Of a DNA stretch of 35,983 nucleotides, positions 1 through 26,542 are shown piece after piece (positions within the stretch are counted from its first letter, which is position 1; every line of letters starts with the position of its first letter). The position numbers were made by a program, and so were the translations under genes. The notes beneath the pieces were generated by a model that saw only the letters and a list, made by a program, of their open reading frames with translations, did no database searches and had not been told where the DNA came from. This DNA is from Moorena bouillonii PNG (GTDB lineage: Bacteria > Cyanobacteriota > Cyanobacteriia > Cyanobacteriales > Coleofasciculaceae): contig NZ_MKZS01000001.1 of the NCBI RefSeq assembly GCF_001942495.1, positions 4,822,346 through 4,858,328 of the forward strand. Reading direction: 5' to 3'.

Positions 1-61
1 GATGTAGATGTAGATGTAGATGTAGATGTAGATGTAGATGTAGATGTAGATGTAGATGTAG
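1..61. repeat. GATGTA hexanucleotide tandem array
   Basis: Ten perfect GATGTA units run from the first base of the window, so the array probably continues to the left. It ends directly at the GGTGGGCA mini-element. No reading frame is associated with it. Confidence 0.95.
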
Positions 62-3567: not shown

Positions 3568-3569
3568 AA

Positions 3570-3665
3570 GTAGGGAGTAGGGAGTAGGGAGTAGGGAGTA
3601 GGGAGTAGGGAGTAGGGAGTAGGGATTAGGGAATCGGGAGTCGGGAGTCGGGAGTCGGGAGTCGG
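3570..3665. repeat. STRR heptanucleotide array (GGGAGTA, drifting to GGGAGTC)
   Basis: Roughly thirteen 7-bp units, mostly GGGAGTA and then GGGAGTC, touch the start codon of the methyltransferase. The same unit reappears at 4378-4411 on the other side of the small PEP-CTERM gene. About 160 bp of AT-rich sequence without a clear promoter lie between this array and that gene. Confidence 0.95.
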
Positions 3666-3828
3666 GGCGAGATAAATGCGAACGCTTCTGAGCTGAATTC
3701 CTACAAGCTCAATTATTAAAAGCCTTCACAATCTTGAAGATAAGCTTCATGATAAGTTTATCAAAAATTTATAAAAAATGTCCAGATTGTTTGGTAGTAT
3801 GACCTAGGAAAATTAATCAGGGATTTAG

Positions 3829-4411: not shown

Positions 4412-4927
4412 AGTGTGGGAAGTGTGGGGAGATGGGGAGAGTGAGGAGGATAAATGCGATTGACCTTGGCCTTTAGGCCACGCTACGCGATCGCTGGGTT
4501 TATATAATAGACCTCTTGCAAAAGTATTTTTTTGATACTGTTTCCCTGGCCGTAGGCCACGCTACGCGAACGATTCTTCTTCACTATTCCCCATTCCCTA
4601 TTCCCTATTCCCGACAACTGCCGCGAAGTCTAATCTTTGGTGTTTGACCCAGTGGGTGGAATGGGCATCTTGCCGGTGGAATGGGCATCTTGCCCGTTAT
4701 CCATATTTTCGGAGCGGCTGTCTCAACCCTGGCAAAGAGGCGAAAAATCAGGGCGAGCCCAAAGGTGGTGCGTTACGGGACCGGCTATCTATACCCTGGC
4801 GACCGATAAAATCAGGTCGAGCCGATCCCTAACGCACCCTACGCACTACGACTCCCGATTCCCGATTCCCGATTCCCGATTCCCGACTCCCGACTCCCGA
4901 CTCCCTGTTCCCTGTTCCCTTTTAAAA
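4412..4927. other. Repeat-filled spacer without genes
   Basis: No convincing gene. Contents: palindromic-repeat copies at 4463-4492 (with a HIP1 site at 4487-4494) and 4546-4571; CCCTATT heptamers at 4587-4612; a 20-bp perfect direct repeat at 4655-4674 and 4675-4694; an inverted-repeat mini-element at 4767-4838; and CCCGATT/CCCGACT/CCCTGTT heptamers at about 4851-4919, which touch the end of the haemagglutinin-CHAT gene. The plus-strand frames here are made of repeat sequence. Confidence 0.8.
4767..4838. repeat. Inverted-repeat mini-element, GGTGCGTTA ends
   Basis: GGTGCGTTA at 4767-4775 is the perfect complement of TAACGCACC at 4830-4838; the match continues inward for about four more bases with a single-base bulge. 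At 72 bp and non-coding it looks like a MITE or other dispersed cyanobacterial repeat. Confidence 0.6.
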
Positions 4928-10861: not shown

Positions 10862-11009
10862 TCAGCTATCAGCCAAGGGCTGATAGCTGATAGCTGATAG
10901 CTGATAGCTGATAGCTGATAGCTGATAGCTGATAGCTGATAGCTGATAGCTGATAGCTGATAGCTGATAGCTGATAGCTGATAGCTGACGGCTGATAGCT
11001 GATAGCTGA
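10862..11009. repeat. STRR heptanucleotide array (GATAGCT), about eighteen units
   Basis: The unit is nearly perfect throughout. TCAGCTATCAGCC at the left is the reverse complement of the array, and a GACGGCT variant lies near the right end, so the transcript could form alternative long hairpins. The array begins about 20 bp beyond the stop codon of the RND pump gene and so would lie in its 3' untranslated region. Confidence 0.95.
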
Positions 11010-11029: not shown

Positions 11030-14000
11030 CTAGAACTTGCCATTACTAGCAGCAACAGAAGTACCATTGCTCAAATACTGCTCAGGCTCTACCTCAACCT
11101 CTACCAGGTCTTGGTAATCTTGAGTTTTACTTCCAAAAAGGGTCTTTCTTGTCCAACGAACTAAGTTATCGACATAGGTAAATAATACTGGCACCACCAC
11201 CAAGGTTAGCAGAGTAGAAGTGGTAAATCCTCCAATCACGGCAATAGCCATCGGACTACGAACTTCACCGGCTGCTCCCCATTCCAAGGCAATGGGAATC
11301 ATCCCAGCAACGGTGGAGACGGAGGTCATCAAAATCGGTCGCAAGCGACTGACTCCAGCTTGAATAACGGCTTTAAACTGGGATGTCCCTTCTTTATGAT
11401 TGGCTAAGGCAAAGTCTACCAACAGAATGGCATTTTTGGTCACCAATCCCATGAGTAATACTATTCCAATTAGGGCATACAGTCCCAATTCCTTCTGGGC
11501 TACCAACAGTCCCATTAAGGCACCACCGATGGATAGGGGTAAAGCCACCAAAATCCCAAAGGGATAGAGAAAACTGTTGTACAACAGTACTAGAATGGCA
11601 TAAATGCACAACACTGCTAGCCCTAAGGCGCTCACAAACCGACTGAATATGTCTTGCTGAATCTTGGCATCCCCAGCGGGTTCCTCGGAAACTCCAGGGG
11701 GTAGGGGATTCATGGCAGGTAGGGATTTAACTTTTGCGATCGCATCTCCTAGAGAAATCCCTTGCAAGTTGCCTCCCAAAGACACCTGACGAGCACGATT
11801 AAAGCGGTCAATCTGGGCAGGTCCACTCCCTAAACGGATATCAGCTACGGCAGTGATCGGTACTAAAGTACCATTTCGACTGGGAACCCGCAGATTTTTG
11901 AGGGTTTCGATGTCATCCCTCGATGCTGGGTCGAGTTGGACACGAATTGGAATTTGTCGGTCAGGTAGGTCAAATTTAGCCAGATTTGACTCAAGATCTC
12001 CAATTAACGCTAAAGAGGCCGTGCGTGCGATCGCTTGAACAGACACTCCTAAATCTGCAGCACGGGCAGGGTTAGGTACAATCACAATTTCTGGTTTAAC
12101 TAGACTTTCACTAGAGGTAACTTCCACTAAACCAGGAATTTGACGCATCTGTTTTTCTAGGGCTTGGGCGGTTTGGGCAAGCAGTTCACCATTCTCACTC
12201 TTGAGAACAATTGATAAATCCTTGGTAGAGCCTCCACGACTTTGACTACGGAAACTAACCCTCGCGCCAGCTATTTTCTGAAAAGCCTGACGCATTTGCT
12301 GAGCAAATTCTTTTTGAGAGATTTCCCGTTCCTCTTTGGGTAAGAGTTTGGCGTATACAATACCAGAATTTATACCATCATCTCCAGCGCTGGCCAGAAC
12401 ATTTTCCACAGCTGGGTTTGACTGCAACAACCGATTGGTTTGTTGAATGACGTCTATGGTTTCATTGAGTTGAGACCCCGGTGGCAGATCAATCAATATC
12501 GTACTAATGCCAGTATCCCCATCATTAAACAAACCCTTGGGAATAAACTGTACAAGCTGCAAGCTACCGATGAAAAAAGCTACAGCTATCAACATCGTGG
12601 TAATCCGGTGCTTCAACGCCCAGGTTAATAGACTTCGATAAGGTTGTATAGGTCGCCTCTGGTGGGTTCCTGGTTGTTCGCGTAGCGTGGCCTTTTGGCC
12701 AAGGTTAGCAGGTTTAAGGTTAGCAGGTTGAAGGTTAGCAGGTTTTTTGCCTTTGCCGTTCGAGTAGGGTAGGTTATTGGGTTGTTCGCGTAGCGTGGCC
12801 TTTTGGCCAAGGTTATTGGGTTGTTCGCGTAGCGTGGCCTTTTGGCCAAGGTTATTGGGTTGATGGTTATTTTGCCAACTTTCAACCTTCAACTTGTCAA
12901 CCTTCAACGGGTCAACCTTCAACGGGTCAACCTTCAACTTGTCAACCTTCAACGGGTCAACCTTCAACTTGTCAACCTTCAACTTGTCAACCTTGGCCAA
13001 TTGGCCACGCTTCGCGAACAACGGGTCAACCTTGGCCAATTGGCCACGCTTCGCGAACAACGGGTCAACCTTCAATGCTTTTGATTTTGGCTTGAGCAAA
13101 TAAGCACTGAGCATCGGTGTCATTGTGGTAGCTACTAGGGTGGAAAACATAGTAGATACCGCAACGGTTACTCCAAAGGGTTGGAAGAATTGACCAGGGA
13201 TACCCCCCATGAAGGCTACAGGAAGAAATACCGCAACAATAGTTGCTGTGGTCGCTACTACAGCTAAACCGATTTCTCGCGCCCCATCCCACGCTGCTTT
13301 AAAGGGTTTCTTACCCATATCCAAGTGCTGGTCGATATTTTCAATCATGCAAATGGCATCATCGACCAAGTTTCCCACTGCTAGGGCTAAACCCAGTAGG
13401 CTCAGATTGTTTAGGGTATAGTTTAGGGCTTTCATCACCAAAAAGGTGGGAATAATTGATAAAGGTAGGGCTATTGCTGTAATTAGAGTTACCCGCCAAT
13501 TTCTCAGAAATATCCCCACGGTGAGTACGGTGAGTAGTGAACCGATAACCAGGGAATCGATGGTTGCTTGGTAAGACTCACGGATGGAATCAGCACGAGT
13601 GAAGATCAAGCGCAGTTCGATATCGTCTGGCAGGGTAGTTTTTAGTTGTTCAACAGCCTTGCGAACCCCTTCTTCCACCGAGACTAAACTGCTACCAGTG
13701 CTGCGCAGCACAGAAAAGGCCACCACTGACTCCCCATTGAGATAGGCGGCTTTCCTAAGATCACCAAAGCCGTCTGTAACCTCTCCCAAACTGGAAAGGG
13801 TAACATTTGCGCCATCTGGGAGTACAATACGGTAGTTTTTCAACTCTTCGACTGTCTTAGCACTTCCCAGAGTCCGGACATTCTGTTCAGCGCCGCCGAT
13901 GTTACCGCGACCACCGGGTAAGTTAACATTAAAACTCCGAATTTGGTCATTAACTTGGGTAGCAGTGATACCAAAGGCTTGTAATCTAGCGGGGTCAAGG

Positions 14001-14566
14001 TCAACTCGAATTTCCCGGTCAACTCCTCCGAGTCGATCAATTTGGGCAACTCCCGGTACATTAACTAGATCACGGCTAATTTTCCGGTCAACTAGATCAC
14101 TCAACTCCTCCACTGAGCGTTTGTCAGAAGCTACCGCATAGGTCATCACTGAACCCCCGGCAAATTCTAACCGTTTGACAATAGGTTCGTTAATATCTAG
14201 GGGCAAACTTTGACGAATTTGAGCTACCGCATTGCGTACATCATTAGTTGCCTGATTGCTATCAGTTCCCAGGACAAAATTGATAACGGTGCTGGATCTG
14301 CCATCAGTAACGGTGGAGCGGATTTGGTCAATGTCTCCAAGGCTAGCAACAGCATCTTCAACTTTTTTGGTTACCTGGAATTCCAGTTCTGCCGGTCCTG
14401 CCCCTGGCTGGGTAACAGTAACCATCACCGCTGGAAGATCAATATTAGGAAGCTGATCAATTCCCAACTGCTTAAAGGAGAATAGACCGACTATTCCTAA
14501 AACCAGAAACATGACCAGAGTAGCAACCGGATTTTTAATTGACCAAGAGGAGACGTGGAAGGACAT
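11030..14566 (-). CDS. RND multidrug-efflux-type pump (AcrB/HAE1) with a repeat-coded insert
   Basis: The protein has 1178 residues against about 1040 usual. It is an inner-membrane proton-driven pump working with the adaptor encoded just upstream and an outer-membrane TolC not found here. The N-terminus starts SSWSIKNPVATLVMFLVLG (TM1). TM4 carries the proton-relay pair in LVDDAICMIEN (Asp402, Asp403). The second half repeats the architecture and ends with the TM10-12 region (LLMGLVTKNAILLVDFALAN, then MIPIALEWGAAGEVRSPMA). Residues about 496-636, at the cytoplasmic junction between the two halves after TM6, are extra and encoded by palindromic and CAACCTT-type repeats; removing them restores normal length. 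The frame stays open across the insert and all core motifs are intact, so the pump is probably functional. ATG start at 14566, no Shine-Dalgarno. Confidence 0.93.
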   Translation of the reverse strand: MSFHVSSWSIKNPVATLVMFLVLGIVGLFSFKQLGIDQLPNIDLPAVMVTVTQPGAGPAELEFQVTKKVEDAVASLGDIDQIRSTVTDGRSSTVINFVLGTDSNQATNDVRNAVAQIRQSLPLDINEPIVKRLEFAGGSVMTYAVASDKRSVEELSDLVDRKISRDLVNVPGVAQIDRLGGVDREIRVDLDPARLQAFGITATQVNDQIRSFNVNLPGGRGNIGGAEQNVRTLGSAKTVEELKNYRIVLPDGANVTLSSLGEVTDGFGDLRKAAYLNGESVVAFSVLRSTGSSLVSVEEGVRKAVEQLKTTLPDDIELRLIFTRADSIRESYQATIDSLVIGSLLTVLTVGIFLRNWRVTLITAIALPLSIIPTFLVMKALNYTLNNLSLLGLALAVGNLVDDAICMIENIDQHLDMGKKPFKAAWDGAREIGLAVVATTATIVAVFLPVAFMGGIPGQFFQPFGVTVAVSTMFSTLVATTMTPMLSAYLLKPKSKALKVDPLFAKRGQLAKVDPLFAKRGQLAKVDKLKVDKLKVDPLKVDKLKVDPLKVDPLKVDKLKVESWQNNHQPNNLGQKATLREQPNNLGQKATLREQPNNLPYSNGKGKKPANLQPANLKPANLGQKATLREQPGTHQRRPIQPYRSLLTWALKHRITTMLIAVAFFIGSLQLVQFIPKGLFNDGDTGISTILIDLPPGSQLNETIDVIQQTNRLLQSNPAVENVLASAGDDGINSGIVYAKLLPKEEREISQKEFAQQMRQAFQKIAGARVSFRSQSRGGSTKDLSIVLKSENGELLAQTAQALEKQMRQIPGLVEVTSSESLVKPEIVIVPNPARAADLGVSVQAIARTASLALIGDLESNLAKFDLPDRQIPIRVQLDPASRDDIETLKNLRVPSRNGTLVPITAVADIRLGSGPAQIDRFNRARQVSLGGNLQGISLGDAIAKVKSLPAMNPLPPGVSEEPAGDAKIQQDIFSRFVSALGLAVLCIYAILVLLYNSFLYPFGILVALPLSIGGALMGLLVAQKELGLYALIGIVLLMGLVTKNAILLVDFALANHKEGTSQFKAVIQAGVSRLRPILMTSVSTVAGMIPIALEWGAAGEVRSPMAIAVIGGFTTSTLLTLVVVPVLFTYVDNLVRWTRKTLFGSKTQDYQDLVEVEVEPEQYLSNGTSVAASNGKF
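12660..13080 (-). repeat. In-frame repeat insertion within the RND pump gene
   Basis: Three palindromic-repeat copies (about 12672-12710, 12779-12815, 12820-12857) lie in one orientation and encode LGQKATLREQ. Two (about 12988-13024 and 13026-13061) lie in the opposite orientation and encode DPLFAKRGQLAKVD. Between them, CAACCTTCAACGGGT-type repeats encode alternating KVD(K/P)L units. About 140 codons are added without breaking the frame. Confidence 0.93.
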
Positions 14567-14949
14567 CTGATAAATAGTTGAAGGTTAATCGGTTGAAGGT
14601 TGAAGGTTAATTGGTTGAAGGTTGAAGGTTAATTGGTTGAAGGTTGAAGGTTGAAGGTTGAAGGTTGAAGGTTAGTTGGTTGTTCGCGAAGCGTGGCCGA
14701 AAGGCCAAGGTTATTTGGTTGTTCGCGAAGCGTGGCCGAAAGGCCAAGGTTAGTTGGTTGAACGCGATTGCGTGGCCAATAGGCCAAGGTTAGTTGGTTG
14801 AACGCGATCGCGTGGCCAATAGGCCAAGGTTATTGGCTCAAGATGCCACTTGTAACCGCCTCACTTTCAACGGTTAATCAACATCGAACCTGTAACCTGC
14901 GTTCCTTTCAACCCTTAATGAATCTGTAACTTGTTAACTTTCAAGGCTT
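14567..14949. repeat. Repeat-filled spacer between adaptor and pump genes
   Basis: GGTTGAAG-type short repeats occupy about 14578-14672. Four tandem 39-40-bp palindromic-repeat units follow (14676-14714, 14715-14753, 14754-14793, 14794-14833). The first two have the GTTCGCGAAGCGTGGCC core and the last two GAACGCGATNGCGTGGCC, the fourth creating a HIP1 site. Each GGCC...GGCC arm can fold. No gene is seen. The array lies within the presumed adaptor-pump transcript. Confidence 0.92.
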
Positions 14950-26209: not shown

Positions 26210-26542
26210 TTGTTAATTAGCTCTGTTTCAAGAGTGGTCAATTTTGATCAAAAAAGGAATTTAGAATTTAGAATTTAGAATTTAGAATTGATTTAAAAAA
26301 TAATTATATACCCTATAATTTTCGATATTTTATCATAATAAATTAATTATATGTAAAAGCTTTGAAATAAAGGATTATCAATAGTTTAAAAAGCAACTTA
26401 AACTTTTATAAAATTAGCTTTTCATTAAGCAACAATGTCTTTCAAGATACCAAGTTAATCAAAAACTACTTGATCAAAAGTTCCCGATTCCCGATTCCCG
26501 ATTCCCGATTCCCGATTCCCGATTCCCGATTCCCGATTCCTT
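26210..26542. other. AT-rich spacer with two heptamer arrays
   Basis: No gene. GAATTTA is repeated four times at 26257-26284, then about 190 bp of very AT-rich sequence, then a CCCGATT array at 26481-26540 that ends two bases before the ATG of the ABC permease. No Shine-Dalgarno remains upstream of that start. Confidence 0.85.

What the first reader, a model, noticed from the sequence alone, without database searches (positions are those of the whole stretch)
12660..13080. Palindromic repeats inserted in frame in both orientations in an RND pump gene
The pump is about 140 residues longer than the family. The excess is exactly repeat sequence that encodes LGQKATLREQ in one orientation and FAKRGQLAKVD in the other, placed at the cytoplasmic junction between the two halves. 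This parallels the protein-coding palindromic elements described in Rickettsia. It suggests the repeat is tolerated, or selected, to stay open in several frames and can create new protein segments.
Basis: partly seen in the sequence, partly recalled or inferred. Interest (0 to 1): 0.75.

Follow-up and report, generated by a model that had tools for sequence, protein, structure and literature searches.

The report
In-frame repeat insert in Moorena pump
A tiny 24-base palindromic repeat and a 15-base tandem repeat, seen as a family only in the marine cyanobacterium Moorena, lengthen loops of an efflux pump and of several housekeeping enzymes without closing their reading frames, a small-scale parallel to the protein-coding repeats of Rickettsia.

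Summary
The RND pump (11030-14566, minus strand, 1178 aa) has residues 497-637 made mostly of repeats, predicted disordered, between two folded halves. Two repeats are nested: 15-nt tandem units (KVDKL/KVDPL; QPNNL/QPANL) and five 24-nt palindromic modules (FAKRGQLA, or read backwards GQKATLRE) exactly between units. Both orientations arise because the 15-nt array runs forward, then backward. Four other Moorena genomes hold different in-frame arrays there, none with this module.

The module is a Moorena family: 101-368 exact copies in each of 4 genomes, none in 33 relatives, one stray match among 387 other genomes of the class. In the sample of the window's genome, 16 of 97 sites lie in frame inside long ORFs, among them MutS2, MetH and magnesium chelatase H. 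MutS2 differs from a congener by exactly 24 nt there; the chelatase has a congener with a fully empty site. AGGTT-type tandem arrays have periods divisible by three in 23 of 23 cases inside ORFs, 32 of 77 outside.

It works like Rickettsia RPEs and intragenic REPs, but is tied to tandem repeats and no transposase was found linked. Selection for openness in many frames is not supported. Translation is inferred, not shown.

The parts
11030..14566 (-). RND (ACR_tran-type) efflux permease ORF, 1178 aa, open through the insert
   Evidence: NCBIfam RND models match below their cut-offs and in two stretches
12656..13078 (-). Repeat-derived insert, residues 497-637, predicted disordered, between the two halves
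   Evidence: AlphaFold pLDDT below 50 over 497-637, no helix or strand there; variable loop among orthologues
13034..13057 (-). 24-nt palindromic module, coding sense, FAKRGQLA
12995..13018 (-). 24-nt palindromic module, coding sense, FAKRGQLA
12876..13072 (-). 15-nt tandem array AAGGTTGAC(AAG/CCG)TTG = KVD(K/P)L, including 39-nt (15+24) composite units
   Evidence: Tandem Repeats Finder rows 12876-12994 (period 15) and 12986-13072 (period 39)
12824..12847 (+). 24-nt palindromic module, antisense to the gene, read as GQKATLRE
12785..12808 (+). 24-nt palindromic module, antisense to the gene, read as GQKATLRE
12677..12700 (+). 24-nt palindromic module, antisense to the gene, read as GQKATLRE
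12771..12862 (+). reversed 15-nt array (coding CAACCCAATAACCTT = QPNNL) carrying two modules, 39-nt period
12746..12769 (-). second 24-nt module type, PYSNGKGK (elsewhere often PYGNAKGE), at the same kind of junction
   Evidence: 11 loose matches in the sample; AACCTA before 9 of 11 and CAACC after 8 of 11
12701..12745 (+). three reversed 15-nt units (KPANL, QPANL, KPANL)
12781..12868 (.). arm 1 of the large inverted repeat formed by the two opposed arrays (partner 12974-13061)
   Evidence: 81% complementary; RNA fold -181.5 kcal/mol, z -11.8
12974..13061 (.). arm 2 of the large inverted repeat
14577..14836 (+). intergenic array of the same kind of repeats upstream of the pump gene, with four copies of the module core (14691, 14730, 14770, 14810)
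4468..4483 (-). single intergenic copy of the module core

Best explanation
This is a Moorena-specific family of very short repeats whose in-gene copies are read as protein. A 24-nt palindromic module sits at unit junctions (typically GTTG^AAGG) of AAGGTT-type tandem repeats with 7-nt and 15-nt units, which occur between genes and also in protein loops. Inside genes the arrays vary in whole-codon amounts and the module adds eight codons, so the frame survives and the product gains a disordered, polar segment. Selection removes versions that shift the frame or put a stop in frame. Shown: an exact 24-nt presence/absence in MutS2 and a fully empty site for the whole array in magnesium chelatase H; frame-compatible periods of arrays in ORFs; one open frame across different arrays in five Moorena genomes; restriction of the family to Moorena in the genomes searched. 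Inferred: that the insert is translated and tolerated rather than useful, that arrays change by slippage or unequal recombination, and that the module is spread by some unidentified copying process; no enzyme was found.
For: Same pump site in five Moorena genomes holds different in-frame arrays; G001 has 16 forward 15-nt units joined directly where G000 has unit-module-unit. MutS2: between the same flanking words G000 has 31 nt and G003 has 7, a difference of exactly the 24-nt module; chelatase H: the array is 183 nt in G000, 144 in G003, 159 in G001 and 0 in G002. Family models above cut-off name mutS2, BchH and metH, and a P-type ATPase at subfamily level. AGGTT-type arrays: period divisible by 3 in 23 of 23 inside ORFs against 32 of 77 outside (Fisher p 8e-8). 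Sense-oriented genic copies in G000 are AA-type 8 of 8, against 6 of the other 150 copies (the 8 lie in 5 ORFs, so are not fully independent). Junction: AAGG on the right in 147 of 158 copies, GTTG on the left in 90 of 158; the right flank is favoured by how stretches were chosen. 271, 357, 101 and 368 exact copies in G000-G003, 0 in 33 relatives, one match among 387 other genomes of the class. MetH hits G000 once, so the copy with the insert is the only one found.
Against: No RNA or protein data: translation is inferred. 81 of 97 sites are not inside long ORFs by my rule. The 15-nt spacing is also common between genes (117 of 626 spacings, against 39 of 138 in ORFs), so 15 nt is not itself a mark of coding selection, and spacings taken singly are not mostly multiples of three in ORFs (65 of 138). 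MetH is not a clean case: the stretch is 48 nt in G000, 51 in G003 and 36 in G001 and G002, so other changes accompany the module. In G001, AA-type is 2 of 3 sense copies, and one antisense copy is AA-type. In G000 the sense-frame-1 copies are AA-type although TA would also be open, so stop avoidance alone does not explain the bias. 42 of 60 sampled stretches of G000 were chosen because they held pattern hits, and long ORFs stand in for gene calls. Which state is ancestral was not tested with a tree.
Confidence: 0.75

Rival explanations
1. A REP-type transposable palindrome: the 24-nt module is a GTAG-tagged REP moved by a RAYT (REP-associated tyrosine transposase), and the tandem repeats are secondary.
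For: Column frequencies show GTAG just before CGTGGCC in most copies (G 0.77, T 0.81, A 0.80, G 0.98), followed by a GGCCNNNNGGCC stem. Cyanobacterial GTAG REPs and in-gene REPs are described (PMC3733652, section 15 and passages).
Against: None of 18 Y1_Tnp (PF01797) loci in G000, with about 1.5 kb on each side, holds the module core; about two would be expected by chance at the genome's density, so this shows no association rather than depletion. The five strongest matches read like IS200-type transposases (my reading). GTAG is internal to the 24-nt unit, and 126 of 158 copies have two or more AGGTT within 60 nt.
Confidence: 0.12
2. The insert is kept for function: as an RNA hairpin that paces translation between the two halves of the pump, or as a protein linker with a binding role.
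For: In G000 the insert RNA folds into one large stem (-181.5 kcal/mol, z -11.8 against dinucleotide shuffles). All five Moorena inserts fold better than mononucleotide shuffles (z -11.5, -4.1, -4.0, -3.5, -4.5). Forward-then-reverse layout is commoner in ORFs (6 of 12 clusters) than between genes (3 of 55; 9 straddling clusters set aside).
Against: The long stem is not conserved: pairs spanning more than 100 nt number 90 in G000, 53 in G001, 10 in SIO3H5, 4 in G003 and 0 in G002. Loop length runs from 19 to 146 residues in these five.
Confidence: 0.08
3. Not a single protein: the pump gene is split at this site, or the repeats are assembly artefacts.
For: Repeats are hard to assemble and no protein data exist here.
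Against: Five Moorena genomes, three of them titled MAG, each show one uninterrupted ORF across different arrays; periods of arrays in ORFs keep the frame.
Confidence: 0.05

Closest known systems
Rickettsia palindromic elements (RPE)
   Same: Palindromic repeats in frame inside unrelated conserved genes, giving extra peptide segments (PMC10969869, passages).
   Different: RPEs are given there as about 150 bp, although PMC3733652 equates RPE-4 and RPE-6 with short CGTC-type REPs, so size alone does not separate them. This module is 24 nt, in a cyanobacterium, and bound to tandem repeats. Sequence relation was not tested.
Intragenic REPs (GTAG- and CGTC-tagged)
   Same: Palindromes of 20-40 bp, mostly intergenic, some inside ORFs of known proteins including repair genes; clusters encoding 43 to 82 residues; loops and linkers suggested as tolerant sites (PMC3733652, section 15 and passages).
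   Different: No RAYT linkage found here; GTAG is internal; the module lies among 7/15-nt tandem arrays; the in-gene segment here is about 140 residues.
Cyanobacterial small dispersed repeats (SDR; Elhai et al. 2008)
   Same: Very small repeat modules in cyanobacteria with precise insertion; SDR5 is said to sit between bases 3 and 4 of HIP1 (PMC4390886, passage). Size range and link to heptamer repeats are recalled, not read.
   Different: Here the usual junction is GTTG^AAGG; 9 of 158 copies have GCGATC directly before the core, which makes a HIP1 site. The 2008 paper is not held, so identity with a named SDR was not tested.
Heptanucleotide tandem repeats and in-gene short tandem repeats
   Same: Units divisible by three favoured in coding sequence (Mrazek et al. 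2007 as cited in PMC4679880, passage). That paper also reports TAACTGA repeats read as LSVISYQ, mostly in hypothetical proteins, 25 of them from Moorea producens.
   Different: Here the arrays sit inside conserved enzymes and carry the 24-nt module.

Membership tests
Rickettsia palindromic elements | In-frame insertion into ORFs of unrelated proteins | tested here: met
   16 of 97 sites in G000, 8 of 35 in G001; families
Rickettsia palindromic elements | Element of about 150 bp (size from PMC10969869) | tested here: not met
   Element is 24 nt; shorter RPE-4 and RPE-6 exist according to PMC3733652 and were not compared
GTAG-tagged REP | GTAG tag at one end of a palindromic stem | tested here: inconclusive
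   GTAG frequent but internal to the 24-nt unit; AAG form in sense genic copies
GTAG-tagged REP | Family flanks a tyrosine transposase gene in the genome | tested here: not met
   0 of 18 Y1_Tnp loci in G000; other Moorena genomes not tested
Cyanobacterial SDR | Very small (about 20-30 bp, recalled) dispersed element in a cyanobacterium with precise insertion | tested here: met
   24 nt; exact presence/absence in MutS2; 271 copies
Cyanobacterial SDR | Sequence match to a named SDR family | not testable with these tools
   Paper not held
MITE | Terminal inverted repeats and target-site duplication | tested here: inconclusive
   A duplication cannot be told apart from the tandem units at most junctions; none is evident at the MutS2 site

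The most novel reading that the evidence does not exclude
Moorena carries an active protein-lengthening system: 24-nt palindromic modules of two kinds that home to junctions of AAGGTT-type tandem repeats and, with whole-codon expansion of those repeats, keep giving each species its own disordered segments in loops of many proteins, including housekeeping enzymes. Opposed arrays may grow outward from a short seed palindrome (AAGGTTGACAACCTT, the state seen in G002).
Probability: 0.4. Interest if true: 0.65.

Novelty: new variant of a known kind. Interest (0 to 1): 0.5.

Why it matters
It shows that repeats as small as eight codons can lie inside conserved enzymes (MetH, found once in G000; MutS2, one full-length match) and change their loops between related species with the frame kept. 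With several Moorena genomes holding empty, near-empty and filled sites, it gives a natural series for asking how selfish repeats become protein sequence, an idea raised for Rickettsia. Gene length and domain annotation in Moorena will be distorted by these inserts. The listings I saw from searches of the held papers name no description of it; that library lacks most subscription papers, and the 2008 SDR paper could not be read.

Tried and rejected
Selection for six-frame openness: rejected, shuffles are as open. RAYT/REP origin: no linkage found. Conserved long RNA hairpin: rejected, long-range pairing is lost in G002 and nearly so in G003. Breakage of genes as the usual outcome: not seen, but 46 of 95 sites reach an ORF on one side only and were not followed, and the 17 two-sided cases were judged by reading alone. 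A repeat origin of this pump loop in other genera: 110 loci were scanned, 25 distinct loops could be parsed, and 10 of these had repeat cover above 98% of control windows; 4 of the 10 are Moorena, one Moorena loop (G002) had none, and the median loop cover was 0, so this is suggestive only. Forward-then-reverse layout: found with one counting rule; with a looser rule it is weaker, in ORFs 8 against 3 reverse-forward in G000 (one of the 8 unrelated) and 5 against 0 in G001 (one of the 5 unrelated), between genes 9 against 5 and 1 against 1. LpxB-like protein (L182): no Pfam or NCBIfam match at the thresholds used, so its name is my reading. The MAFFT gaps do not place the module cleanly; one search measures the stretches between fixed words instead.

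Full report
What is there. The window lies in genome G000. It shares a genus with G002 and G003, whose pump contigs match in length the records named Moorena sp. SS36440bin_2 and SIO3I8, so I call it Moorena. The gene at 11030-14566 on the minus strand is an RND permease of 1178 aa. Residues 497-637 (window 12656-13078) form the insert. The AlphaFold model from 27 sequences has mean pLDDT 64.6 and pTM 0.56; 624 of 1178 residues reach 70 or more. The insert scores about 25-36 per block of ten (42 in its last) and has no secondary structure. Shorter stretches elsewhere, such as 854-885 and the C-terminus, are also below 50. The insert lies between a helix ending at 490 and one starting at 642, which by the known AcrB topology is the cytoplasmic joint between halves (inference).

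Anatomy. On the coding strand the insert reads: 15-nt units AAGGTTGAC(AAG/CCG)TTG (KVDKL, KVDPL), then a turn (KVESWQNNH), then reversed units CAACCCAATAACCTT (QPNNL) and QPANL/KPANL. Between units sit 24-nt modules: TTCGCGAAGCGTGGCCAATTGGCC twice in the first array (FAKRGQLA) and GGCCAAAAGGCCACGCTACGCGAA three times in the second (GQKATLRE). A second 24-nt module, PYSNGKGK, lies at 12746-12769. The module core is found 10 times in the window, 0.09 expected.

Orthologues. In the same place G001 has 16 forward units and no module, G003 one forward unit and nine QPNNL units, SIO3H5 a short version that holds a PFKNAKGE segment like the second module, and G002 only KVDNLQPATD, whose DNA AAGGTTGACAACCTT is a 15-nt palindrome. 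Loop lengths are 146 (G000), 128, 93, 41 and 19 residues. Each is one open frame. So the insert is a fast-changing array. Polarity (gain or loss) was not tested with a tree.

Genome-wide. The exact pattern GCGTGGCCNNNNGGCCAAGG occurs 271, 357, 101 and 368 times in four Moorena genomes and 0 times in 33 relatives. In a class-wide draw of 388 genomes only G000 and a single match in one other genome (G077) were found. Ten of the 33 relatives recur in that draw, so 410 distinct non-Moorena genomes were examined. In 1.22 Mb of G000 there are 158 loose copies at 97 sites; 27 copies at 16 sites lie in frame in ORFs of at least 250 aa. In 0.40 Mb of G001 it is 11 copies at 8 sites, out of 56 and 35; two of these sites are in a doubtful 344-aa ORF. 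With about 60% of each sample in such ORFs, modules are depleted from genes (binomial p 9e-19 and 1e-5). Most stretches were picked for hits: 42 of 60 in G000 and all 20 in G001.

Which genes. Models above their cut-offs name endonuclease MutS2, magnesium chelatase subunit H and methionine synthase MetH; a P-type ATPase is named at subfamily level, its Ca-type equivalogs scoring below cut-off; CheA models match two kinases below cut-off. Pfam shows a GH38 mannosidase, a PAS/HATPase kinase, and a polyketide synthase whose module lies between a sulfotransferase and a hydrolase domain; in MetH the insert lies between the B12-binding and activation domains, and in MutS2 between two stretches of the MutS_V domain. 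Orthologues in other Moorena carry other arrays of the same kind in these loops, and relatives outside carry unrelated sequence (for the loci where both edges were found).

Presence and absence. In MutS2 the stretch between the same flanking words is 31 nt in G000 and 7 in G003, differing by exactly the module. In the chelatase the array is 183 nt in G000, 159 in G001, 144 in G003 and 0 in G002, where the flanks meet directly; all are multiples of three. In MetH the stretch is 48, 51, 36 and 36 nt, so there the module is not the only change. The chelatase's first module is shared with G003 and G001, so some insertions predate species splits (or were lost in G002).

Frame logic. Tandem arrays of AGGTT type have periods divisible by three in 23 of 23 cases inside ORFs and 32 of 77 outside; for all arrays it is 69 of 80 against 102 of 424. 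Single AAGGTT spacings do not show this so plainly (65 of 138 in ORFs, 199 of 626 between), because longer units are built of unequal steps such as 7+17 (the last point is my reading). The module is read in four frames in G000: 16 copies as GQKATLRE, 4 as FAKRG-type, 4 as REAWPKG-type, 3 as WPKGHAT-type. Frame is set by the array it sits in. Openness in many frames needs no special explanation, since shuffled 24-mers are as open. Sense copies in genes of G000 are AAG-type 8 of 8, while the sample as a whole has 14 AA of 158. In G001 it is 2 of 3, the exception lying in a frame where TAG is not a stop. In one sense frame TAG would be a stop, in the other not, so the bias is only partly explained.

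Mechanism. Best supported is tolerance plus filtering: repeats enter or arise in length-variable loops, change by whole units, and survive when the frame stays open. The agent that spreads the 24-nt module is unknown. None of 18 Y1 transposase loci carries it. The strong RNA hairpin in G000 looks like a by-product of the opposed arrays, since its long-range pairing fades in the other species, although all five inserts fold somewhat better than shuffles.

Relation to the known. In-frame palindromes in genes are known from Rickettsia (PMC10969869, passages) and for REPs in several bacteria (PMC3733652, section 15 and passages). The preference for multiples of three in coding repeats is known too (PMC4679880, passage). 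What I did not find described is the coupling of a 24-nt module to tandem repeats, the restriction to Moorena and the set of conserved enzymes affected. I therefore call it a new variant of a known kind. Papers by Ogata, Claverie and Elhai were not read; they are known from citing passages and memory.

Noticed in passing
L178:9585-10148 (+): A 188-aa open frame that reads like part of a glycogen-debranching-type enzyme ends at a repeat copy; by reading only, a possible truncated gene.
   Followed up: no
L158:10318-10610 and L156:10099-10131: Module copies lie in the spacers of what read like atp and ndh operons (names from reading the translations).
   Followed up: no
L207, L212, L219, L253: Genomes G005 and G020, outside Moorena, carry a different repeat (SQFPIPNSQFPIPNS-like) in the same loops of MutS2, magnesium chelatase H and the LpxB-like protein, hinting that other lineages fill the same loops with their own repeats.
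   Followed up: partly
L181:9020-15712 (-): Polyketide synthase with a sulfotransferase domain followed by a hydrolase domain, with a module in the linker between them.
   Followed up: no
window 1-61, 2150-2257, 3569-3666, 10879-11009, 26481-26540: Many 6-nt and 7-nt tandem arrays, mostly between ORFs.
   Followed up: no
L150, from 10103: Twelve module copies in head-to-tail 39-nt composite units lie in a 209-residue open frame (LAYGPRYANNLRT repeats); probably not a gene.
   Followed up: no
L203 (MutS2 loop): The fragment GGTTGTTCGCGAACAACC, with a variant in L202, looks like the left end of the module fused to its own mirror image.
   Followed up: no
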